Origin: a virus
Reading direction: 5' to 3' (one strand)
Length of the DNA stretch: 21,418 nt
Virus record (IMG/VR): IMGVR_UViG_3300044716_000487
Location: 1 to 21,418 of that record
The notes under the pieces were generated by a model. It was not told where the DNA came from. It worked only from the letters and a program-made list of their open reading frames with translations, and ran no database searches. A program made the translations under genes and the position numbers. Below are positions 4,431-21,083 of the stretch, piece by piece (the first letter of the stretch is position 1; every line of letters begins with the position of its first letter).

Positions 4431-4799
4431 ATGAGAACCTTCAAAGAATATCTTATAGAGACAGGAACTTTTTCTGAAATAGAACTTCAAATGTTAAATG
4501 AAAATTTGAAATCCGAGCTGACACCTGAAGAAGAAGCCAAAGTTGATGAAGCAGTTAAAAAATTCTGTGAAGAATATCTTGAGAAAAACAAAGGAATGAA
4601 AGAATTTAATGAGGAACTAACAAATGAAGGATTTTTAGGATCGGTAATTGGTGGTTTAACTGGTTATGCATTAGGTTCATCTATTGGTAAAGTTATTGCA
4701 AATGTACTCGGTATCCAAAAAGGCGTTGTCTATGATTTACTAACTAGTAAACTAGTTGGAGCTGCATTAGGTGCTGCCCTTGGAAAACGAATGATATAA
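4431..4799 (+). CDS. Tagged small glycine-zipper protein, possible internal head/core protein
   Basis: The 122-aa product begins MRTFKEYLIE-TGT, a variant of the tag found on many proteins in this window, with LIE matching an (I/L)-x-E prohead-protease site. Residues 25-60 are strongly acidic and helical. Residues 63-122 are hydrophobic with Gly/Ala every few residues (GSVIGGLTGYALGSSIGK, later KLVGAALGAALGKRM), a glycine-zipper arrangement that could pack against or insert into membranes. T4 places small head-core genes (67, 68) after the tail-tube and portal genes; this one follows a tube-like gene, so an internal head protein is plausible. A pore-forming or DNA-entry role is an alternative. 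Function is inferred from layout only. Confidence 0.5.
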   Translation: MRTFKEYLIETGTFSEIELQMLNENLKSELTPEEEAKVDEAVKKFCEEYLEKNKGMKEFNEELTNEGFLGSVIGGLTGYALGSSIGKVIANVLGIQKGVVYDLLTSKLVGAALGAALGKRMI

Positions 4800-5533: not shown

Positions 5534-6169
5534 ATGAAAACTTTTATAGAATTTATTAACGAATCAAAAAACGAGGAAACTCAAGCTCCTATTAGATCCG
5601 AAAGGCTCCTTACACAAGAACAAAAGATGTGTAATGAATTATATGAGGGAAAGAGAGGATATCCTGCCGTAATGTTTACGGATGTGGTTGGATCTTCACA
5701 AATGTGGTCAGATGATACTCTATCAATGAAGAAGCGAATCGATTCACACTTTGAGCTAATAAATGATATAGCTAAGAATTATAATGGATTCGTGGTTAAG
5801 TCTATTGGAGATGCATTTATGATCTATTTTAAAGAATCTGATGATACTTTAGATCGAGCTATAAAATGTGGAATTGATATACTCAAATCAGAATCTCTTC
5901 CTTTACGTGTTGGAATCTGTGAAGGTCATATGCAAGAAAAAACTTATGTCCTACAAAATGCCAGACTTAAAGATTTTTTTGGTAACGTAGTTAATGTAGC
6001 TTCTAGAATGGAATCTAAAGTTGCTGATCCTGAAGGAATTGCTTTCTCTTCAGTAGATAAAGTTCCTCAATACATATTAGATAAATACGAACCTCAAGTT
6101 CTAGGACCTAAACAAATACCAGATCTTAAAGGAGCTAGTATAGAAACGGTGTTCAAAATAAAACCATAA
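5534..6169 (+). CDS. Tagged class III adenylate/nucleotide cyclase
   Basis: The 211-aa product starts with the tag MKTFIEFINE-SKN, then has one class III cyclase catalytic domain (about 43-210). The metal-binding aspartates are Asp50 (FTDVVGSS) and Asp93 (SIGDAFMIYF). The substrate-selecting pair is Lys89 and Asp147 (DFFGNVVNVASRM), the combination known for ATP rather than GTP. The transition-state residues Asn154 and Arg158 are present in the N-x-x-x-R spacing. All catalytic positions are intact, so cAMP synthesis is the prediction, probably as a homodimer; uridylate or cytidylate cyclisation is possible because Pycsar cyclases belong to this superfamily. There is no membrane segment or sensor domain. 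The tag suggests the enzyme is packaged in the head and delivered on infection, where it could disturb host signalling or nucleotide-based defence. Confidence 0.9.
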   Translation: MKTFIEFINESKNEETQAPIRSERLLTQEQKMCNELYEGKRGYPAVMFTDVVGSSQMWSDDTLSMKKRIDSHFELINDIAKNYNGFVVKSIGDAFMIYFKESDDTLDRAIKCGIDILKSESLPLRVGICEGHMQEKTYVLQNARLKDFFGNVVNVASRMESKVADPEGIAFSSVDKVPQYILDKYEPQVLGPKQIPDLKGASIETVFKIKP

Positions 6170-6170
6170 A

Positions 6171-6740
6171 ATGTTCTTAAAATATAAAGAGTTTCTTAAC
6201 GAGAAACAAAAACATCACCCAGGAGATCCTCCAGAAATCGGTCTTTATTCTAAAGGAGGTAAAGAAGCCCTTAAAGGAACTGGATATTCAGATAAAGAAA
6301 AAGCAGAATCTACGTGTAAGCAACTTGATGGTTTAAAAAAGAAAGGTGAACATAAATGGGCTATGTCAATAGCTACTACTATGGAATCTCGAGCTAAAAA
6401 GCATCAACATCAAACCGATGGTATGAGAGATGCTATTAAAGTATTCCGTGAATGGATTGACAAGAATAGAACAACTGAATCTGTCGATGAGGCTGAAAGT
6501 AAAACTTTATTTCATCCAGGAGAAGGGGATAAAGTTGAAGGTACTGGATACGCTGATGCGGAAGCGGCTAATAAAACAATAGCTATTATCAATAAATTAA
6601 AGAAGGAAGATCATAATCATGCAATGGCTATAGCTACTACTATGGAAAATAGAGCTAAAACTCATAAATTTAGCACTCCTGATATGAAAGAGGCTGCTAA
6701 GATATTTAGAGAATGGATAGATAAAAACAAAAAAAGCTAA
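6171..6740 (+). CDS. Tagged protein with two tandem copies of a helical domain
   Basis: The 189-aa product begins MFLKYKEFLNE-KQK, the tag. The rest is an internal duplication: residues about 34-99 and 121-187 each run GTGY[SA]D...AM[SA]IATTME[SN]RAK[KT]H...FREWIDKN. Both copies are His/Lys/Ala-rich and helical. At the DNA level an identical 18-nt string (6369-6386 and 6630-6647) lies in equivalent positions 87 codons apart. Similar GTGY...A..Ta..M..RAk.H...GM..A repeats occur in hypothetical phage proteins, but I know no function. The short linker ESVDEAES between copies resembles ES-x-x-NE-A linkers in other tagged proteins here. It starts one base after the cyclase stop and overlaps the HNH gene by one base. 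Confidence 0.65.
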   Translation: MFLKYKEFLNEKQKHHPGDPPEIGLYSKGGKEALKGTGYSDKEKAESTCKQLDGLKKKGEHKWAMSIATTMESRAKKHQHQTDGMRDAIKVFREWIDKNRTTESVDEAESKTLFHPGEGDKVEGTGYADAEAANKTIAIINKLKKEDHNHAMAIATTMENRAKTHKFSTPDMKEAAKIFREWIDKNKKS

Positions 6741-7093
6741 TGGCTCTGAATCCAAACTTAATTAACTTTGAGACTTATAGAGATAATTACGATGATCTTC
6801 TAGAAAATAAGGAAGATTATTTTATTTTTGTTAGAGCACTAACCGAAAGAAACTATGATTTGTTTAAGACTAGAATCAATCCAAAGAATCTCAAAAGATC
6901 TTGGAAGGCCAATCATTTAGATCATATATACTCGATATCTCAAGGATTTAAAGATGGCATAAATCCATTTTGGATTGCTCATCCATGTAACCTTCAGATG
7001 CTAAAAGCTAAGGAAAACAAAAAGAAGAACGCCAAATGTGGACATACTCAAGAGGAGCTTTTTGAGAAAATAAAAGAACTTGGAGAAATATGA
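6740..7093 (+). CDS. HNH endonuclease-like protein
   Basis: The 117-aa product has a compact HNH pattern: NHLDHIYSIS (His59, Asp61, His62), then PCNLQML (Asn84) and KENKKKNAK (Asn93 with flanking Lys). The segment DHIYSISQGFKDG then IAHPCNLQML matches HNH nucleases of T4-type phages, including free-standing homing enzymes and host-DNA nucleases. No zinc-binding Cys pairs are evident; only Cys83 and Cys100 occur. The N-terminus (MALNPNLINFETYRDNYDDL) is not a clear tag, although NFETY and DLLE are faintly similar. It sits inside a run of translationally coupled tagged genes (1-nt overlap before, 4-nt overlap after). It could be a homing endonuclease that inserted here or part of the accessory set. 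Confidence 0.72.
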   Translation: MALNPNLINFETYRDNYDDLLENKEDYFIFVRALTERNYDLFKTRINPKNLKRSWKANHLDHIYSISQGFKDGINPFWIAHPCNLQMLKAKENKKKNAKCGHTQEELFEKIKELGEI

Positions 7094-7488
7094 GTAATTT
7101 CCTAAAATACGAAGAGTTCATAAATAAAAAAGAACCTCTGATTGAATCAGAAGATCTTTCGTTTTTGAATTACGAAGAATTTCTATTAGAAAAGAAATGG
7201 AATAAGGATGTTGAATCTAGTCATTTGAAAAATCTTAAATATGATTCAGATACCAGAGTTCTAGAAATTGAATTCAATAATGGTTCAGTTTATCAATACC
7301 AAGAAGTTCCTAAAGGAGTTTTTAGAGACCTATCGATGGAGCATAATATACTTCAGAAAATAGGTAAAGGGATCGCAAAAGGGGCTAGAAAGCTATTTGG
7401 TAGAGACGCGGTAGACGAAGGTACTTTCGGTACTAGATTTTGGGACCTTATCCGAAGAGGTGGTTACGAATATAAAAAAGTAAGATGA
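7090..7488 (+). CDS. KTSC-domain protein with two tags and a cationic helix
   Basis: The 132-aa product has two consecutive tag-like segments: residues 1-19 (MSNFLKYEEFINKKEPLIE, ending in LIE) and 25-34 (FLNYEEFLLE). A KTSC domain follows: SSHLKNLKYDSDTRVLEIEF (43-62), GSVYQYQEVPKGVF (65-78), and a C-terminal FWDLIRRGGYEYKKV (117-131). KTSC is a small domain related to the C-terminus of lysyl-tRNA synthetase and is thought to bind nucleic acid. Between its halves sits ILQKIGKGIAKGARKLFG (87-104), a strongly cationic amphipathic helix not in the usual short KTSC form. The double tag may reflect a tag duplication. ATGA overlaps with both neighbours suggest translational coupling. The KTSC call is fairly secure; the function is unknown. 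Confidence 0.75.
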   Translation: MSNFLKYEEFINKKEPLIESEDLSFLNYEEFLLEKKWNKDVESSHLKNLKYDSDTRVLEIEFNNGSVYQYQEVPKGVFRDLSMEHNILQKIGKGIAKGARKLFGRDAVDEGTFGTRFWDLIRRGGYEYKKVR

Positions 7489-8156
7489 GAAACCTAATAG
7501 ATTACGATCAATTCCTATTTGAGGAACGTAGAAAGATGATATTTAGAAATAGAGGTAATGCTGAAATTACATCAGCTGATTCCGATATTATTGATGCAAT
7601 TACCGAATGGATAGATCAAAAAACGCCTCCTCATAAAGCTGACAAAATTGGAGATTTTTTGAACCAAAATCGCGATAGAATAAAAGGTTTGATGAAAACT
7701 AAACCAGAAATTTATGCTCCTCCATTTGGAGATGTTTGCTATAGAGGACTTGAAAAAGTTTCTAATATGGAACAAGTTATAGACCTTGTAAGTAAAGGAC
7801 GCTTCAAACAAGTTAAAGCTCCTGGATATGAAGGTATGATATCAGCTATAAAAATAGAAAATTACGATTATTCACCAAGAAGACTTGCTCAATCTTGGTC
7901 AATAGATCCTGATGTTCCGTGGAGATTTTCGAATTCAGGTATAATTTTAGAAGCCGAAATTGACGGAGACTTTATAATGAATCCTTCATATACATCCAAT
8001 ATAAATAAGACAATTAATCGGTCTGGACCTAGCGAAGGCTTAACCGAAGAAGAGGTTATTCACTTAGGTAAGAAATATAAAAAAGTTACTCTTTATATTG
8101 ATATCGGTAGCGTAGAAGACGATAGTCCTTTATTTCCTTTTGTGAAAGATCTTTAA
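7485..8156 (+). CDS. Tagged ADP-ribosyltransferase-like protein (Alt-like role)
   Basis: The 223-aa product starts MRNLIDYDQFLFE-ERR, a tag ending in LFE. The body carries the signature order of R-S-E mono-ADP-ribosyltransferases: Arg87 in CYRGLE after a helical region, Ser137-Trp-Ser139 in AQSWSID, and a C-terminal Glu188-Glu-Glu190-Val-Ile (TEEEVIHLG) matching the E-x-E-V-I/L end motif. The strand after it, KKVTLYIDI, is the usual closing strand. The spacing is normal for the fold. In T4, Alt is such an enzyme: packaged in the head, trimmed by the prohead protease and injected to modify host RNA polymerase. A tagged enzyme of this fold would be a strong analogue. The assignment rests on motifs by eye; sequence similarity to Alt itself is not apparent. 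Confidence 0.6.
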   Translation: MRNLIDYDQFLFEERRKMIFRNRGNAEITSADSDIIDAITEWIDQKTPPHKADKIGDFLNQNRDRIKGLMKTKPEIYAPPFGDVCYRGLEKVSNMEQVIDLVSKGRFKQVKAPGYEGMISAIKIENYDYSPRRLAQSWSIDPDVPWRFSNSGIILEAEIDGDFIMNPSYTSNINKTINRSGPSEGLTEEEVIHLGKKYKKVTLYIDIGSVEDDSPLFPFVKDL

Positions 8157-8190: not shown

Positions 8191-9276
8191 ATGAGTAATC
8201 AACCTTCTATTCCCAGCTACTTTTCATTGGAATCTCAAAGGCGAGAAATTCAAAATCTATTTAATTCTGAAGATAGTATAAAGTATATCGGTCACGAATT
8301 GATGGTTCCTAACAAAAATGATTACCGAGTCATTCCCTGCACGTCCGATAGATGGACTCTTTTCAATAACGATGGAGATACTAATTTAATCTCAAATGTG
8401 TGTCTGCACCGTCAATCTAAGTTACTTAATGGTAGTGGAAATAAGAAAATTATCGGATGTAAAGTACATTGTTGGTCTTATGAAAACACCGGCAAAGTTA
8501 AGTCTACTCCTTTCTTTAAAGATCCAAAGGTAACCGAATTAAAAAGCAAAAAATTAAGCAATTGGAATGGATTGCTTTTTGATGGGCGTACTCCAGATCT
8601 AGATCTTAAAGCTGCTGGAGTTGACCAATATATCAATTTTGACGGATTCTTCTTTCATTCCTCAACTACAACCGAATATAACTTCAATTGGAAAACATTT
8701 TCTGAAATCTATTTAGAGAACTATCATGTTTTTGGTATGCATCCAGGTCTTAAAGATTTTGTCAATCCGACTGATCTAGAATGGGTTGTTGATAAAGATT
8801 ATTCTCTTCAAAAGGTTGGTATAAATTCTGCACTTAGAATGAGAAGTGGAACTCCTAAATATGCTGAATGGCATAAAGCAATTTCTGAAGCATATCCAAG
8901 CGAACTTCCTAGATATGGAGCTATTTGGATATACATTTATCCAAACATTATGATTGAATGGTATCCGAATGTTTTAGTCGTTTCAACCATACATCCTATA
9001 GAACCTCAAAAATGTGTTAATCATGTAGAGTTTTACTATCCAAAAGCCATGTACGAGGCAAATCCTGATTATTTTAGAATTGAACAAGAAGTATATGAAG
9101 AAACTGCAATAGAAGATGAAGAAGCCTGTTTACTTTTAGATGCTGGAAGAAAATCTCTTTTTGCTGAAGGTGGATATGAATATGGTCCAGTTGAGCCATT
9201 CCTAGAAATGGGAGTAAATGAATTTTATGAGTATCTGAAAAAATCACAAATGGACTCAGATACATATAATAACTAA
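8191..9276 (+). CDS. Rieske-type non-heme iron oxygenase (ring-hydroxylating family alpha-like)
   Basis: The 361-aa product has an N-terminal Rieske domain with Cys71-x-His73 and, after 16 residues, Cys90-x2-His93 (CLHR...CKVHCWSY), the complete [2Fe-2S] ligand set. A catalytic domain follows with NWKTFSEIYLENYHVFGMHPG, giving the mononuclear iron ligands His179 and His184 (H-x4-H). A later acidic helix, AIEDEEACLLLDAG, supplies the likely carboxylate ligand (Asp309 or a nearby Glu). Length and order match alpha subunits of Rieske oxygenases such as choline, carnitine or aromatic hydroxylases. Substrate cannot be read. No reductase or ferredoxin gene is nearby, so host electron donors would be needed. 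There is no tag. A metabolic gene between the tagged cassette and SSB is probably a host-derived acquisition. Confidence 0.92.
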   Translation: MSNQPSIPSYFSLESQRREIQNLFNSEDSIKYIGHELMVPNKNDYRVIPCTSDRWTLFNNDGDTNLISNVCLHRQSKLLNGSGNKKIIGCKVHCWSYENTGKVKSTPFFKDPKVTELKSKKLSNWNGLLFDGRTPDLDLKAAGVDQYINFDGFFFHSSTTTEYNFNWKTFSEIYLENYHVFGMHPGLKDFVNPTDLEWVVDKDYSLQKVGINSALRMRSGTPKYAEWHKAISEAYPSELPRYGAIWIYIYPNIMIEWYPNVLVVSTIHPIEPQKCVNHVEFYYPKAMYEANPDYFRIEQEVYEETAIEDEEACLLLDAGRKSLFAEGGYEYGPVEPFLEMGVNEFYEYLKKSQMDSDTYNN

Positions 9277-10445: not shown

Positions 10446-11354
10446 ATGAAAGGCATAGTACTAGCAGGTGGAAGAGGAACTAGACTCCACCCCATCACAA
10501 TACCACAAGTTAAACAATTACTTCCGGTCTATGATAAACCCATGATTTATTATCCAATATCGATATTGATGTTGGCAGGTATTAGGGACATCATGATTAT
10601 CACAAATCCCGAGGATGTTGAATCTATGAGAAGATTACTCGGTGATGGTTCCGACTTAGGTTGCCGTTTCGAATTTGATGTTCAGGCTGAACCTAAAGGA
10701 ATTGCAGATGCATTTATTATTGCAGAAGATTTTATTGGATCAGATCCAGTATGCCTTATTTTAGGAGATAACATTTTTTATGCTTCCGGTCTCGGAGGAC
10801 TTCTTAGATCTCGAGTTCTTGAATGGAAAGGACATCGAGGAATAGCTCCAGCTCAAGGTGCATGTGTATTTGCATATCATGTATCTGATCCTGAAAGATA
10901 TGGAGTTGTTGAATTTAATTCAAACAATAGAGTTTTATCTATTGAAGAAAAACCTAAAAACCCAAAATCTAACTATGCAATTCCAGGTCTATACTTCTAC
11001 GATAATAAAGTAGTTGAATATGCTAAAAATCTTAAGCCATCTGATAGAGGTGAACTTGAAATTACTGATATCAATAAGATTTATTTGGATAAACAACGAT
11101 TACATGTTACTAAATTCCAAAGAGGAACTGCATGGTTAGATACCGGGACTTTTGATTCATTAATGCAAGCTGGTCAATTCATACAAACAATTGAAGAACG
11201 ACAAGGACTTAAAGTTGGTTGTATTGAAGAAATTGCTTATAAAAACGGATGGATCGATGTTGAACAAATTACTAATTTAGCCGAAAAATACTCAAAAAGC
11301 GGATATGGAGAATATCTGAAAACTTTAGCAATTAACGAACCAATAACTTTTTAA
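10446..11354 (+). CDS. rmlA: Glucose-1-phosphate thymidylyltransferase
   Basis: The 302-aa product is full length for RmlA/RfbA (about 290 aa). It makes dTDP-glucose from dTTP and glucose-1-phosphate. The signature [11 protein letters not shown] (8-18) and [19 protein letters not shown] (21-39) bind nucleotide and phosphate. LGDNIFY (107-112) carries the metal-binding Asp108, and later [29 protein letters not shown] and [12 protein letters not shown] cover the sugar and second metal sites. All are intact. No RmlB, C or D gene is present, so the product presumably feeds a host pathway or a phage glycosyltransferase elsewhere, for example for surface glycan or DNA modification. The gene starts just after the terminator and is 2 nt from the ClpP gene, so it probably heads a new operon. 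Confidence 0.95.
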
Positions 11355-15197: not shown

Positions 15198-15419
15198 ATG
15201 TCGTTAATGAAATTTCGTGCTTTTAATAAGATCCGCAAGGAGGTTAAAGAGCAAAAATTCAGAGAGGCTAACGCCACTAAATTCAAGAAAGCTTTCCTAG
15301 AAAACCTTTCTAAATATGGAGCAAAAGATGCTTCTGAATTAGATGAAGAGCAACTAGCCGAATTCCTAGAAACCATGAAAAATTACAAAAATAATCTAAA
15401 TAGCAATGAAACTTTATAA
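15198..15419 (+). CDS. Small helical hypothetical protein
   Basis: The 73-aa product follows the helicase gene by 4 nt and overlaps the next gene by 14 nt. It is charged and helical: an N-terminal Arg/Lys-rich stretch (MKFRAFNKIRKEVKEQKFRE), then FKKAFLENLSKYGAKDASEL and acidic DEEQLAEFLETM. The second half resembles short phage segments of the form KF...L.kyGv.s..eLs.ee...F, often joined to unrelated domains, with no known function. A start at the next Met (15207) is equally possible. The frame and compact spacing support a real gene; no function is claimed. Confidence 0.55.
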   Translation: MSLMKFRAFNKIRKEVKEQKFREANATKFKKAFLENLSKYGAKDASELDEEQLAEFLETMKNYKNNLNSNETL

Positions 15420-16431
15420 CTTTGAAGAGTTCCTTAATGAAATGAAATTTAATGAAGAACATGAAATGCTCCTAACCGAAGCATTCAATTCAAGCATCAT
15501 ACAAAATATGACTGCAAATAAAAAAGGTGGCCTCGGAAAAACATTTTACGATGCGCTATCTAAAATGGGAATTGCTGCATCAACCCTAACAAATGCAGAT
15601 CTAACACCGGTTACGCCTCAAGATGCAGAAAAATTAACAAAACAAGATCCTAATCTAATTTTAATTTACTATTCGTCAAAGGAAAAGAAAAATCCATATA
15701 CTAACGATTCTTGGTATAGCAAAGTTGATGGTGATTGTGTTCTTGCAGTTGTTAAAGGTAAGTTATATATGGCTCTTAAATACGACAGATATGCAAGTAA
15801 AGGAGGAAAGGCTGAATATAATTTGGTTCCTGCTATCGATAAAAACGCAGGACAAGCTCTCGGAGGTGTAGAAAAAACCGGTGGTAAATACGGATCTGGT
15901 TTAACTTCCCTTAAGAGAATGGCTGATGTTACTGATGTTGTTTATGTTATCAATCCATCTGAACTTGAAGTTGATAGTAAAAAAATGAGAACCGAAAGAG
16001 CTGAGGCTAAAAAAGGTGCTGCTGCTTTTAAAGATGACAAGCAATTCAAAGCAGAAAACATGTCTAGATACGAAGCTATTTTAAGAGAAAGAGCTTCAAA
16101 TGATGATATCGATTCTATTGTTAGAGATTCAATTGATAAAATAACCGATCAAATTAAAGCAGCGTTAACTTCCGGTAAAAAAGGATCCTATGGAGATATT
16201 TTAGTTGGTGAAGATCCTAAAGGAAGAGAAGTTAGAATGTCGGATGCTACTCGTTTGATGGAAAAAATGCTAGATAACTATGCACGTTATACTCAATATA
16301 TAGATACCGCACAAAAATCAGAAGAGCGTCATGGTTTAGAAGATAGCTACTACAAAAGAGAAGCTGCTTCTAAAGCAAAAGACATTAAAGATGCAGCTAA
16401 GAAGATAGAAAATTTTAATTACGCTTGGTAA
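15406..16431 (+). CDS. Tagged protein of unknown function, candidate virion cargo
   Basis: The 341-aa product begins MKLYNFEEFLNE-MKF, a clear tag with LNE before the predicted cut. A second acidic stretch, FNEEHEMLLTEAF, follows directly. Residues about 25-190 look alpha/beta (LILIYYSSKEKKN, DCVLAVVKGKLYMALKYDRY, VTDVVYVINPSE), and the rest is Lys/Glu/Ala-rich helix (for example ERAEAKKGAAAFKDDKQF and a KAKDIKDAAKKIENF end). I recognise no domain. The long basic-acidic helical C-terminus would suit a protein packed with DNA. It overlaps the preceding gene by 14 nt, so the two are probably coupled. Confidence 0.6.
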   Translation: MKLYNFEEFLNEMKFNEEHEMLLTEAFNSSIIQNMTANKKGGLGKTFYDALSKMGIAASTLTNADLTPVTPQDAEKLTKQDPNLILIYYSSKEKKNPYTNDSWYSKVDGDCVLAVVKGKLYMALKYDRYASKGGKAEYNLVPAIDKNAGQALGGVEKTGGKYGSGLTSLKRMADVTDVVYVINPSELEVDSKKMRTERAEAKKGAAAFKDDKQFKAENMSRYEAILRERASNDDIDSIVRDSIDKITDQIKAALTSGKKGSYGDILVGEDPKGREVRMSDATRLMEKMLDNYARYTQYIDTAQKSEERHGLEDSYYKREAASKAKDIKDAAKKIENFNYAW

Positions 16432-17697: not shown

Positions 17698-18525
17698 ATG
17701 AACACTAGACAAATTTTTGAAGCTAGAACTCAAGTTAAAAGAAAATACGGTGAGCACGCTTCTATTAGAGTAAATGAAAAAACTCCAGTAAGAAATAAGG
17801 TTATTGAATTCGTAGGAAAACGATTTGTAACTGAAACCGAAATGAAATCCTATTTAACTCAATTGAGTGAATCAAGAGGTAAAGAGCTTAATCAAAAACA
17901 GTGGTTTGCGCGTAATCAAAAATTCTTTGAATCTTTTGAGAACCGAGGACAAAAAGTTTGGACTTTATCTAAATATGGTAAAAGAGTTCATGAGATGATA
18001 ACTAAAAGCGCTCAAAAGCAAATGGTTAGTGAATCTATCGGACTTTTCAAATCTCAAATTTTTGAATCTGCTATTAATGAAGGAGTTTCCATCAATAATC
18101 TTGGAGATTATAGTTTCCCGGAAAATGGTAATTTTTCTATAGAAACTCCAGAAGAACAAGAAGCTATTATGAAATTCCTCAATGTTAGATCTATGGATGA
18201 GCTTTATAATTTCGGCGGTGAAGTTGAAAATGATTCTGAAAGAGGTGGAGATGAAGCAGATGGATTGAATCTTTATGACGATTATAATGAAGGACCTGAT
18301 GGAGAATTTAATCAATTCGCATTTTTTGAATTGAGAAGAAGAATGTTAGGAGGAAAAAGACCTGATGCATTACCAGATATATTAGACACTAACGGAATGG
18401 GTCATATCATCGAAGGAGCAATCAAAGGAGTTTGCTACTGGGGTAACGATTACGGATATGAATATATTTACGTTAACAAGAAGACAGTAATGGAGCTACT
18501 TAAAGAATTTAATGCAAATAATTAA
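17698..18525 (+). CDS. Protein with winged-helix-like N-terminal domain and internal tag-like linker
   Basis: The 275-aa product has a basic N-terminal part (residues 1-100) whose segment PVRNKVIEFVGKRFVTETEM...WFARNQKFFE...KVWTLSKYGKRVHEMI has the helix-turn-strand rhythm of a winged-helix DNA-binding domain. Residues 113-129, SIGLFKSQIFESAINEG, are nearly repeated at the start of the gene at 21085 and end in INE-G, an (I/L)-x-E site. The C-terminal half is acidic (an EVENDSERGGDEADGL stretch) and ends in an alpha/beta segment GVCYWGNDYGYEYIYVNKK. It may be made as a precursor and cut at the internal site. Function unknown; the DNA-binding suggestion is from pattern only. It overlaps the next gene by one base. 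Confidence 0.5.
   Translation: MNTRQIFEARTQVKRKYGEHASIRVNEKTPVRNKVIEFVGKRFVTETEMKSYLTQLSESRGKELNQKQWFARNQKFFESFENRGQKVWTLSKYGKRVHEMITKSAQKQMVSESIGLFKSQIFESAINEGVSINNLGDYSFPENGNFSIETPEEQEAIMKFLNVRSMDELYNFGGEVENDSERGGDEADGLNLYDDYNEGPDGEFNQFAFFELRRRMLGGKRPDALPDILDTNGMGHIIEGAIKGVCYWGNDYGYEYIYVNKKTVMELLKEFNANN
18034..18084 (+). other. Second-class tag, internal copy (SIGLFKxQIFES...NEG)
   Basis: Encodes SIGLFKSQIFESAINEG inside a 275-aa protein. The same motif opens the protein at 21085 as SIGLFKNQIFESVRLNEG. Both end in (I/L)NE-G, compatible with prohead-protease cleavage. Confidence 0.5.
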
Positions 18526-18800
18526 TGATAAACCTAATCTCATATGAACAATTTATTCTAAACGAAGCTTTAGATACATCTAAGATCTCAGAGATTAAAA
18601 AGTTAGTCTCTGAGAAACTTAGAACTGAAGTAGAATATACGGAATCTTCCGGAGTATTCACATGTAATGGTCTTTCATTATGTGATTTTTCTATACTAGA
18701 AGATATACTTAAAGACGCAGGTTTTGAAGCTAAAAATATCAAATTGAACGGAACTCTTATTTCCGGTTCTACTGAATTTGAAATAAAAGAGAAAAAATGA
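18525..18800 (+). CDS. Tagged small alpha/beta protein
   Basis: The 91-aa product begins MINLISYEQFILNE-ALD, the tag with one extra residue before LNE. The remaining 75 residues read helix (TSKISEIKKLVSEKL), strand (TEVEYTESSGVFTC), helix (DFSILEDILKDAGF) and two strands (NIKLNGTLIS, STEFEIKEK), a small compact alpha/beta fold. Two Cys are present (Cys48, Cys53). No family is recognised. It overlaps the upstream stop by one base and the next gene by four (ATGA), so it sits in a coupled run of tagged genes. Size and tag together suggest a small internal head protein comparable in scale to T4 IPI-IPIII. Confidence 0.6.
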   Translation: MINLISYEQFILNEALDTSKISEIKKLVSEKLRTEVEYTESSGVFTCNGLSLCDFSILEDILKDAGFEAKNIKLNGTLISGSTEFEIKEKK

Positions 18801-19393
18801 AAAATTTAATATCATACGAAGACTTCCTAAATGAATCATATGCATATGACACTAAAAGAGGATGTAAGCATATCAAATTTATTTTGAGTGATCCTCTAAT
18901 GTACAAAACACCTTTTTACATTTCCTTCAAAAAAGGAACGACTGAAAAAGAAGTTGAAAATCTTATTAAAGAAATCGAAAAGGAAAATAAGTCAATTTCT
19001 AAAATGAAAAGAACTTATGGACCTGGACCTTTTGGTCAATTAAGTCTCCAAATCGAAAAACCTAATTATGCAGGACTTACTTGGATATTTAAGGCCCTTG
19101 ATGAATTTTACGGAAACAACGGAGATTCAATGGGTTGGTTCGGTGGTATCGGTGAATCAATTACCGAATCAGAACTTAACGAAATGAAATTTACTTCTGC
19201 TGGAGTTAAAGAATTACTAAGTGCAATCTATTACAATTGGAATAAATTGAAAAAGGAGATGAAAGAACAAATGTACTTTAACGACTTTAAGCAAATCCTT
19301 GATTATATGAAAGATGCTGATCAGGAAGAACAAAAAGAATTAGAAGACTTTGTAAAATCTCAAGGTATTGAAATTTTAGCATTAGACAAATAA
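18797..19393 (+). CDS. Tagged two-part protein of unknown function
   Basis: The 198-aa product begins MKNLISYEDFLNE-SYA, close to the consensus of all tags here. Residues 20-110 look alpha/beta (GCKHIKFILSDPL, then Lys/Glu helix, then QLSLQIEKPNYAGLTWIF). A linker GGIGESITESELNE-MKF at about 116-132 contains a second LNE site followed by MKF, the same three residues that follow the tag in the protein at 15406. The last 65 residues are a helical, acidic domain (YYNWNKLKKEMKEQ...DQEEQKELEDF). The second site suggests that the protein could be cut into two mature pieces. Function unknown. Confidence 0.6.
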   Translation: MKNLISYEDFLNESYAYDTKRGCKHIKFILSDPLMYKTPFYISFKKGTTEKEVENLIKEIEKENKSISKMKRTYGPGPFGQLSLQIEKPNYAGLTWIFKALDEFYGNNGDSMGWFGGIGESITESELNEMKFTSAGVKELLSAIYYNWNKLKKEMKEQMYFNDFKQILDYMKDADQEEQKELEDFVKSQGIEILALDK

Positions 19394-19401
19394 GTAACAA
19401 A

Positions 19402-19743
19402 ATGAAGAATCTTAAAACTTACGATCAATTCATAAATGAATCCAGTCTTCCTTTAGAGATTGAAAAGATCATGAAAACCACTAAAATGGAGTGGAAAGAA
19501 GATGAGGAAATGACTGATGAATTAATGGATGAGCGAGGAGGAGATACCTCAGATGCGTATGTTTATGTTGCAGTTAACAAATCTAGAGATCGTGAATATG
19601 TATTCAAAACTTGGTTAAATGATAGAATGTATAACATCCAATTAGAAGAGGATGAAACTGTTATCTTTACCGGGCAATACAACAGAAATGATAAAAAATA
19701 CTATGATCGAGACTGTGAAAACATTCTTGGTTTTTCCTTTTAG
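19402..19743 (+). CDS. Tagged small acidic protein
   Basis: The 113-aa product begins MKNLKTYDQFINE-SSL, the tag. The mature part is acidic: EWKEDEEMTDELMDERGGDTSD (51-70 region is charged), then a beta-rich half with AYVYVAVNKSRDREYVFKTW, MYNIQLEEDETVIFTG and a final NDKKYYDRDCENILGFSF. This could be a small beta-barrel or DNA-mimic-like protein; the negative charge is notable but not diagnostic. No family recognised. The next gene follows after a 25-nt gap containing the GATAAATATAAAAA element. Confidence 0.6.
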   Translation: MKNLKTYDQFINESSLPLEIEKIMKTTKMEWKEDEEMTDELMDERGGDTSDAYVYVAVNKSRDREYVFKTWLNDRMYNIQLEEDETVIFTGQYNRNDKKYYDRDCENILGFSF

Positions 19744-19768: not shown

Positions 19769-20518
19769 ATGAAAAATATCAAAACTTTTGAACAATTTAT
19801 CAATGAAACTACTCTTAATGCATCTTACAACAATGCTTTAAGATCTGCTGGCGAATTGGAAAAGAAATTAGGAATTATGCTCCAAACTCAATGGAATTCT
19901 ATTGACGGAGGAACATCTCACTTAGAAAGAGAAGAACAAGATGCAGTTAAAAAACATGGTCAATTTGCAGTATTCACAATTGAATCTCTTCCTAAAGGAA
20001 CCGCATTTTCAAAGTCTATAAATGATTTGAAAGAAAATCTTTTCTTGTTAATATGGGAAGATGGAACCTACCAATTTAGAAAGGGTATGCAACCTATTGC
20101 AACTCCTCTACATTCTAGCGCTGAAAGATCTAAAATCAAATCAGGAGCTTACATTCCAAGACCATTAAAAGAACTTGATTTACAATGCTTAAATCATTGC
20201 TTGTCTATGGCAGTTAATGAATCTGTTAACGAAGGTAAATCTTATAAAGGAAGAGAAGTTCTTCCTAATTGGATTGATCCTAATAGAGATTTTGGTAAGC
20301 CAGTGAAGAATAGAAGAGAACTTAAGTCTGGTGCTGAATATATCCTTTGGGAACCTGGAATGGACACTTGGCAAGCTGAATACATCTACCAAGGTCAAAC
20401 CGGAGGTAAACATATATTCAATTCATCAACTCAATTCGGAGATGGAGAACCAATGGAATTTACTGATGCTGAGATAGATGAATACATCAAATCTGGTGAC
20501 ATAATTAAACAAAACTAA
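19769..20518 (+). CDS. Tagged two-domain protein of unknown function
   Basis: The 249-aa product begins MKNIKTFEQFINE-TTL, the tag. Domain 1 (about 20-145) is mixed alpha/beta, with AVFTIESLPKGTAFSKSI and LFLLIWEDGTYQF. A linker, MAVNESVNEGKSYKGRE (147-163), has two NE-S/NE-G steps like those in other tagged proteins. Domain 2 (about 165-249) looks beta-rich (ELKSGAEYILWEPGMDTW, AEYIYQGQTGGKHIF) and ends in an acidic helix. If VNE-G is also cleaved, two separate polypeptides would result. I recognise no family for either domain. It ends one base before the next ATG. Confidence 0.6.
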   Translation: MKNIKTFEQFINETTLNASYNNALRSAGELEKKLGIMLQTQWNSIDGGTSHLEREEQDAVKKHGQFAVFTIESLPKGTAFSKSINDLKENLFLLIWEDGTYQFRKGMQPIATPLHSSAERSKIKSGAYIPRPLKELDLQCLNHCLSMAVNESVNEGKSYKGREVLPNWIDPNRDFGKPVKNRRELKSGAEYILWEPGMDTWQAEYIYQGQTGGKHIFNSSTQFGDGEPMEFTDAEIDEYIKSGDIIKQN

Positions 20519-20519
20519 T

Positions 20520-21083
20520 ATGCCATCAACCACTCCGGCTCAACAAAGACTTATGGGTCAGGCTTATGCAGTTAAGACTGGTAAATTAAAACCAACCGAT
20601 TTAGATCCTGAATATAGAGATCAAATTGTTAAATTAGCTGACTCTATGACCGCTAAAGATCTAAAAGACTTTGCTGAGACTAAACATTCAGAAATGGAAG
20701 AAGAGGAAGAAGAAACTATATACGAAATGAAAAATATACCGACATTCGAAAATTTCATTAACGAATCAATAGTTAATGAAGCTAAAGCTATTAAATGGAA
20801 GCCTTCTCAAAATCCAAATGCTGAAGGATGGACTGGAAAATCTTTTCCTCATGGATCTAAAGGAGATAGGCTGCTATCTCGTGCAGAATTCATTAAAAAA
20901 TGGTCTACTAGAATAGAAAGTTGGATTGGAGTTAAGCCGAATTTAGATGCGGTTGAAGAATTCTTTCCTAATCACTCTATAGATTTTAATTTTGCAGGTT
21001 CAGATGGACAAACATATCGAATCTATTCACCAGGTGAAGGTCCTAGATCTAAAGAATATCACATACAAAAATTAAAGAAATAA
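20520..21083 (+). CDS. DUF3008-like domain fused through an internal tag to a second domain
   Basis: The 187-aa product starts MPSTTPAQQRLMGQAYAVKT and continues to MTAKDLKDFAETKH (43-56), the pattern of DUF3008-like phage proteins. An acidic hinge (EMEEEEEETIYE) leads to Met70, which opens a complete tag, MKNIPTFENFINE-SIV. The last 100 residues form a second, basic alpha/beta domain (AIKWKPSQNPNAEGW, LLSRAEFIKKWSTRIESW). The tag belongs at an N-terminus elsewhere, so either two genes fused here or a second translation start operates at 20727. The second domain is unrecognised. A frame join is intact with no frameshift. Confidence 0.6.
   Translation: MPSTTPAQQRLMGQAYAVKTGKLKPTDLDPEYRDQIVKLADSMTAKDLKDFAETKHSEMEEEEEETIYEMKNIPTFENFINESIVNEAKAIKWKPSQNPNAEGWTGKSFPHGSKGDRLLSRAEFIKKWSTRIESWIGVKPNLDAVEEFFPNHSIDFNFAGSDGQTYRIYSPGEGPRSKEYHIQKLKK
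20727..20765 (+). other. Complete tag at an internal Met (possible internal start)
   Basis: Encodes MKNIPTFENFINE within the protein at 20520-21083, in frame. The ATG at 20727 sits in an A-rich context (tacgaaATGaaaaat) like genuine starts here, so it may be used as a second start as well as being a fusion junction. Confidence 0.5.

What the first reader, a model, noticed from the sequence alone, without database searches (positions are those of the whole stretch)
7485..8156. Tagged ADP-ribosyltransferase-like protein, a probable functional analogue of T4 Alt
The R-S-E motif order (Arg87, Ser137-Trp-Ser139, Glu188-x-Glu190-Val-Ile) sits behind a tag ending in LFE. T4 Alt is also an R-S-E transferase that is packaged, trimmed and injected. 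Finding the same enzyme class with the same predicted delivery in a probable Bacteroidota phage supports the cargo hypothesis independently of the motif itself.
Basis: partly seen in the sequence, partly recalled or inferred. Interest (0 to 1): 0.75.

Follow-up and report, generated by a model that had tools for sequence, protein, structure and literature searches.

The report
Capsid-tagged phage enzyme, likely ADP-ribosyltransferase
This phage gene makes a small protein that begins with an address tag like the one phage T4 uses to pack proteins into its head, followed by the active-site pattern of enzymes that attach ADP-ribose to host molecules, so it is probably a weapon packed in the virus and injected with its DNA; related phages carry dozens of different proteins behind the same tag.

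Summary
ORF 7485-8156 (223 aa) has Arg87, Ser137-Trp-Ser139 and Glu188-x-Glu190 behind the leader MRNLIDYDQFLFE. The leader is a T4-type capsid-targeting sequence: positions known from T4 IPIII (4, 7, 8, 10) map with identical spacing to Tyr7, Phe10, Leu11, Glu13. A strict DNA pattern for it hits 5 genes in the window and 89 places in 10 related records, with none for the reversed control. Ten of ten larger relatives encode the T4-type prohead protease (S77) and gp23. The cleavage triplet recurs at the capsid protein's N-terminus and 4-10 times in the protease-scaffold fusion. Four R-S-E candidates were found among 1167 phage proteins; all four are tagged.

The ADP-ribosyltransferase assignment is good by motif but not proven. 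Arg, Ser and both Glu are invariant in relatives at about 30% identity, one with the same tag and two with a different leader. No Pfam, NCBIfam or PDB sequence match exists, comparison with Alt found only the YRG stretch, and two AlphaFold runs (pLDDT 40 and 46) were too poor to show a fold. It most likely works like Alt, but is not shown to be an Alt relative. Packaging, injection and catalysis are inferred.

The parts
7485..8156 (+). ORF of the tagged R-S-E protein (P0001, 223 aa); its ATG overlaps the stop of the upstream gene (ATGA at 7485-7488)
7485..7523 (+). N-terminal capsid-targeting tag MRNLIDYDQFLFE; predicted prohead-protease cut after Glu13
   Evidence: strict tag pattern hit at 7485-7523, reversed control 0; tag composition; T4 CTS mapping (PMC9026906)
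7524..7727 (+). probably helical N-terminal part of the mature protein (residues 14-81)
   Evidence: alignment A10; helices in low-confidence models
7743..7745 (+). Arg87 of the R motif (CYRG), predicted NAD binding
   Evidence: invariant in A10 and in core alignment A5
7893..7901 (+). Ser137-Trp138-Ser139, S motif (S-x-S/T)
   Evidence: Ser137 invariant in A10
8046..8054 (+). Glu188-Glu189-Glu190, E-x-E motif; Glu190 predicted catalytic
   Evidence: Glu188 and Glu190 invariant in A10 and A5
7090..7488 (+). upstream gene with a doubled tag-like leader and a KTSC domain, stop overlapping the start of P0001
5534..6169 (+). tagged class III nucleotide cyclase (MKTFIEFINE leader, 7 of 10 residues as T4 IPIII MKTYQEFIAE)
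   Evidence: PF00211 E 2.5e-16; T4 sequence
4431..4799 (+). tagged glycine-zipper-like protein, family in 15 records
6171..6740 (+). tagged protein of the commonest tagged family (26 copies in 18 records)
15406..16431 (+). tagged 341-aa protein
18525..18800 (+). tagged 91-aa protein
18797..19393 (+). tagged 198-aa protein
19402..19743 (+). tagged 113-aa protein
19769..20518 (+). tagged 249-aa protein
20727..21083 (+). tag inside ORF 20520-21083, after a DUF3008 domain; a second start or an internal tag

Best explanation
P0001 is a head-packaged effector of a T4-related phage. Its first 13 residues are a T4-type capsid-targeting sequence that draws the precursor into the prohead core, and the T4-type prohead protease removes them after Leu-Phe-Glu13. 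The 210-residue mature protein travels in the head and enters the cell with the DNA, where it works as an R-S-E class mono-ADP-ribosyltransferase: Arg87 and Ser137 hold NAD, Glu190 drives its cleavage, and Glu188 at the E-x-E position favours arginine as the acceptor. The host target is unknown. Shown here: the tag, its recurrence, the protease and the cleavage triplets in head proteins of relatives, the conserved R, S and E-x-E. Inferred: packaging, cutting, injection, NAD chemistry and acceptor.
For: Tag: T4 IPIII needs residues 4 and 7 for targeting and 8 and 10 for processing (PMC9026906); T4 ipII and ipIII begin MKTYQEFIAE, and the same spacing is met by Tyr7, Phe10, Leu11, Glu13 here. 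239 strict tags are 86% F/Y at -6, 83% F/Y at -3, 94% L/I/V at -2, and LFE is used by 8. Strict DNA pattern 94 hits, control 0. Protease S77 and gp23 in 10 of 10 relatives. [LIV]NE occurs 4-10 times in the protease-scaffold fusion against about 1.3 expected, and INE is invariant at residues 4-6 of the major capsid protein. The scaffold part carries the tag-like heptad Y-x-x-x-[LIV]-x-E 7-11 times, often 14 residues apart, against 1.1 expected. Enzyme: invariant R, S, E, E in relatives at about 30% identity, E-value 1.7e-4 for the relative in a 254-kb record; R-S-E pattern hits 4 of 1167 proteins, all tagged; a tagged protein in another relative shows weak ART-PolyVal similarity, E 0.0011. E-x-E as arginine type follows PMC7827354.
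Against: AlphaFold models were unusable (pLDDT 40 and 46) and the fold searches on the better one empty. No ART family matched in Pfam, PHROGs, NCBIfam or PDB sequences. Comparison with Alt profiles gave only the YRG stretch at E 0.02-0.08, and an Alt profile does not rank P0001 at all. The aromatic residue usual at position 3 of the ARTT loop is Gly185 here. The window itself holds no S77 protease or gp23; both come from relatives.
Confidence: 0.64

Rival explanations
1. The protein is a genuine tagged head cargo, but not an ADP-ribosyltransferase: the R, S and E residues are conserved for another reason, and it acts for example as an inhibitor of a host defence, as T4 IPI does.
For: No ART family match and no confident fold. 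Of 130 clusters of tagged proteins only about a dozen match any Pfam family, so orphan inhibitors may be common among the cargo.
Against: R, S, E and E invariant at about 30% identity, in the right order and spacing, followed by hydrophobic strand-like residues; the R-S-E pattern is found in four proteins only, all tagged.
Confidence: 0.24
2. The tag is a core-assembly signal only: tagged proteins take part in building the prohead core and are digested or expelled during maturation, without being delivered to the host.
For: The tag resembles the 14-residue repeats of the scaffold part of the protease fusion, and T4 core fragments do leave the head (PMC5694885).
Against: About 45 tagged genes per genome in 130 largely unrelated clusters, including cyclase, RimK-like, glycosyltransferase and AAA domains, is not what a scaffold needs; in T4 a protein with this tag stays in the head and is ejected (PMC9026906).
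Confidence: 0.12
3. The protein is an R-S-E enzyme that uses NAD but serves another end than modifying host proteins: it may simply cleave NAD, or modify RNA, DNA or a small molecule.
For: ARTs are known that modify DNA, RNA and antibiotics (PMC7827354); the substrate cannot be read from the sequence, and the usual aromatic residue of the ARTT loop is missing here.
Against: E-x-E is the form seen in arginine-specific protein ARTs (PMC7827354), and the packaged phage precedent, Alt, modifies host RNA polymerase.
Confidence: 0.2

Closest known systems
Phage T4 Alt (packaged mono-ADP-ribosyltransferase)
   Same: R-S-E order with YR, S-x-S and E-x-E; short N-terminal leader ending in [IL]xE; predicted packaging, trimming and injection
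   Different: 223 aa instead of 682; no detectable sequence or profile similarity beyond YRG; longer leader of the IPIII type; target unknown
Phage T4 internal proteins IPII and IPIII with their capsid-targeting sequence MKTYQEFIAE
   Same: targeting and cutting residues at identical spacing; varied bodies behind a shared leader; T4-type prohead protease in relatives
   Different: 13 residues instead of 10; about 45 tagged genes per large relative genome against three internal proteins and Alt in T4; the leader echoes repeats in a protease-scaffold fusion, which T4 gp22 lacks
Head-packaged phage ARTs (MuF-fused, N4-type and polyvalent-protein ARTs; PMC9503650)
   Same: ARTs predicted to be packaged and injected early; strong bias to contractile-tailed phages
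   Different: delivery there was inferred from fusion to head proteins or from gene position; here from a separate cleavable leader
Ejection proteins of giant phage SPN3US (PMC5694885)
   Same: dozens of proteins in the head, some cut by a gp21-related protease
   Different: other cleavage motif (AxE), and only eight head proteins found cut there

Membership tests
T4-type capsid-targeting sequence (CTS) proteins | short N-terminal leader with the targeting residues at the T4 positions 4 and 7 | tested here: met
   Tyr7 and Phe10 at the T4 spacing; T4 sequence, function of positions in PMC9026906
T4-type capsid-targeting sequence (CTS) proteins | cleavage triplet (I/L)-x-E at the end of the leader | tested here: met
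   LFE at 11-13; used by 8 of 239 strict tags, LNE/VNE/INE by 176
T4-type capsid-targeting sequence (CTS) proteins | phage encodes a gp21-type (S77) prohead protease | tested here: inconclusive
   10 of 10 larger relatives do; the 21-kb window is a fragment and shows none
T4-type capsid-targeting sequence (CTS) proteins | protein found cut in purified virions | not testable with these tools
   needs mass spectrometry
R-S-E class ADP-ribosyltransferases | R, S-x-S/T and E-x-E motifs in order, conserved among relatives | tested here: met
   (invariant R87, S137, E188, E190)
[quoted passage not shown]
   AlphaFold pLDDT 40 and 46, no meaningful fold match
R-S-E class ADP-ribosyltransferases | aromatic residue at position 3 of the ARTT loop (usual, not universal) | tested here: not met
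   Gly185 in P0001, Leu in the relative L142; PMC7827354 names exceptions
R-S-E class ADP-ribosyltransferases | NAD cleavage or transfer dependent on the catalytic Glu | not testable with these tools
   needs assay
Alt family (phrog_802 and kin) | sequence or profile similarity over the catalytic domain | tested here: not met
   hhalign E 0.02-0.08, YRG stretch only; Alt profile search does not rank P0001; no Alt PHROG match
Alt family (phrog_802 and kin) | modifies host RNA polymerase alpha | not testable with these tools
   needs experiment
ADPrib_exo_Tox (PF03496) | match over the curated cut-off | tested here: not met
   no match in P0001 nor in 23 related records

The most novel reading that the evidence does not exclude
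A whole clade of large phages uses one short, interchangeable leader, modelled on the repeats of its own protease-scaffold fusion, to load some 45 different proteins into the head, among them several unrelated lines of R-S-E and perhaps H-Y-E ADP-ribosyltransferases and a nucleotide cyclase; bodies move between phages and swap leaders. P0001 is one exchangeable warhead of that system and belongs to a new ART family.
Probability: 0.45. Interest if true: 0.8.

Novelty: new variant of a known kind. Interest (0 to 1): 0.64.

Why it matters
T4's packaged Alt and internal proteins are the classic case of phage proteins delivered with the DNA, and packaging of other phage ARTs has been inferred from gene fusion or position. 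A readable leader with a matching protease and matching sites in the scaffold gives a direct, sequence-based list of what a phage probably injects: about 45 proteins per large genome here, most without any known family. It offers a way to find new host-takeover and anti-defence enzymes, and a testable idea of how the targeting sequence works, by imitating the scaffold.

Tried and rejected
AlphaFold2 for P0001 with one relative (pLDDT 40) and for the relative L142 with three others (pLDDT 46): too poor; Foldseek on the second gave nothing below E 0.1, and nothing was read from them. Adding the distant ART2 sequences to the alignment was dropped because MAFFT misplaced their R or S motif. Direct homologues of P0001 or its family in phage records, plasmids and bacterial genomes: none; in IMG/VR only through the relative. 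A third 'relative' in G018 turned out to be a primase, and G016:113523 shares only the tag. Membership in the Alt family was tested by hhalign and by an Alt profile and not met. The A10-A11 profile match (probability 78, E 1.8e-5) between P0001's family and ART2 includes the tag and misplaces the R motif, so it is support for kinship but not counted as proof. The strict 13-residue tag is absent from PTm1, pT24, MA9V-1, Lak-B5 and T4, so no cultured phage with it was found.

Full report
What was checked. ORF 7485-8156 translates as described, with Arg87, Ser137-Trp-Ser139, Glu188-Glu-Glu190-Val-Ile and a leader ending in LFE. Its start codon overlaps the stop codon of the upstream gene. The window is a 21,418-base viral record, probably a fragment. 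Its genes include a gp32-like single-strand binding protein, a UvsW-like helicase, a primase, a tail-tube-like protein and a ClpP-like protease, so it is a T4-related phage. Capsid relatives with named hosts are mostly phages of Prevotella, Tenacibaculum, Chryseobacterium and Flavobacterium, which fits a Bacteroidota host without proving it.

The tag. Searching with the gp32-like gene gave 51 related loci. Large relatives were read piecewise. In G012 (254 kb) 44 and in G016 (294 kb) 52 ORFs carry the leader by a broad regex (a few are chance hits, such as the protease itself). Across the set 317 of 2465 N-termini fit against 45 of 7324 internal methionines. In T4 the same regex fits 5 of 217 ORFs, two of which are the internal proteins IPII and IPIII, MKTYQEFIAE. 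The 239 strict tags show F/Y, two mostly acidic residues, F, L/I/V, mostly N, then E, followed by S, A or G. A strict DNA pattern gives 94 hits in 11 records (5 in the window) and none with the reversed pattern; one hit is the start of P0001. T4 experiments place targeting at residues 4 and 7 and cutting at 8 and 10 of the IPIII leader (PMC9026906). These map without a gap to Tyr7, Phe10, Leu11 and Glu13 of P0001. The window's tagged cyclase has MKTFIEFINE, seven of ten residues as in T4.

The protease and its sites. All ten larger relatives encode a Peptidase_S77 protein (the gp21 family, over Pfam's cut-off) and gp23. The protease is fused to a long C-terminal part that looks like scaffold. 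[LIV]NE occurs 4-10 times in these fusions against about 1.3 in shuffles, while the whole proteome is up only 1.7-1.9 fold. INE is invariant at residues 4-6 of seven major capsid proteins. The tag-like heptad Y-x-x-x-[LIV]-x-E occurs 7-11 times in the fusions, many 14 residues apart, against 1.1 expected and 1.13 per 600 aa elsewhere; T4 gp22 has none. I infer that the tag imitates the scaffold repeat, which would explain both targeting to the core and cutting by the same protease. Coiled-coil periodicity could produce part of this.

The enzyme. P0001 has no match in Pfam, NCBIfam, PDB sequences or phage records, and only weak PHROG matches without meaning. A relative was found in G012/G013 at E 1.7e-4, 31% identical, tagged MKNIQTYESFLNE, with YRG, SWT and EKE. 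Two more, about 64% identical to that relative, lie in other phages (L234, L235) behind the leader MIRLIDLL[QR]E; in L235 the neighbouring genes share yet another leader, MKDIIRMxQLAGIITE. The body is thus kept while the leader changes. R87, S137, E188 and E190 are invariant in the four (chance about 8e-4). A more distant tagged protein, ART2 (G012:222063-222845, also L140), has LYRG, SFT and EFE; profile comparison links it to P0001's family at probability 78 with reservations. An R-S-E regex over 1167 non-redundant proteins returned four: P0001, the relative, ART2 and a 589-aa protein of G027 with Q-x-E; all are tagged, at a background of 13.4%. A tagged protein of G016 has weak similarity to ART-PolyVal (E 0.0011, below the curated cut-off).

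What could not be shown. Two AlphaFold runs had too few relatives and failed. Alt-family profiles align only at YRG, at E 0.02-0.08, and an Alt profile search does not pick up P0001. The usual aromatic residue of the ARTT loop is missing. So P0001 is not filed as an Alt relative, and its place in the ART superfamily rests on motifs and their conservation.

How it most likely works. The precursor joins the prohead core through its leader, is cut after Glu13, stays with the DNA, and is ejected into the host; there it transfers ADP-ribose from NAD, most likely to arginine given E-x-E (PMC7827354), on an unknown target. Packaged phage ARTs are thought to act early against host machinery or defence (PMC9503650). 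Shown: tag, conservation, protease and sites in relatives. Inferred: everything that happens in the virion and the host.

Standing. Packaged ARTs and targeting leaders are both known. New, as far as the searches here reach, are the orphan family, the joining of such a body to a separable leader outside the T4 group, the size of the tagged set, and the likeness of leader and scaffold repeat. Of 130 clusters of tagged proteins about a dozen match a Pfam family at all.

Noticed in passing
window 5534-6169: A class III nucleotide cyclase domain (PF00211, E 2.5e-16) sits directly behind the leader MKTFIEFINE, the window's closest match to the T4 targeting sequence; its tagged cluster spans three records. 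A cyclase packed in a phage head would be unusual.
   Followed up: partly
window 7090-7488: KTSC-domain protein with two tag-like stretches in a row (NFLKYEEFINK and SFLNYEEFLLE) before the domain.
   Followed up: no
window 20520-21083: The tag pattern lies inside an ORF, after a DUF3008 domain, at 20727; either a second start or an internal tag. A similar arrangement is seen in G027:4268-4981.
   Followed up: no
L235:4000-5697 and L236: Two neighbouring genes share another leader, MKDIIRMxQLAGIITE, followed by a second LNE; next to an ART relative with the leader MIRLIDLLRE. Looks like a second leader type in other phages.
   Followed up: partly
L061:1682-3583 (G012:101682-103583) and homologues: Prohead protease fused to a scaffold-like region with 14-residue repeats that resemble the tag.
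   Followed up: yes
L074:9751-10218 and L074:10221-10610 (G016): Two neighbouring tagged small proteins with YHG/YHT motifs; the first has weak ART-PolyVal similarity (E 0.0011), so H-Y-E type ARTs may also be cargo.
   Followed up: partly
L066:17410-17784 (G012:217410-217787): Tagged 125-aa protein next to the ART relative that looks ParB-like by eye (HDGSHRMLAL); no significant Pfam match.
   Followed up: no
window 8191-9276 and 10446-11354: Untagged Rieske ring-hydroxylating oxygenase (PF00848, PF00355) and, by eye, a sugar-nucleotide transferase next to the cargo island.
   Followed up: no
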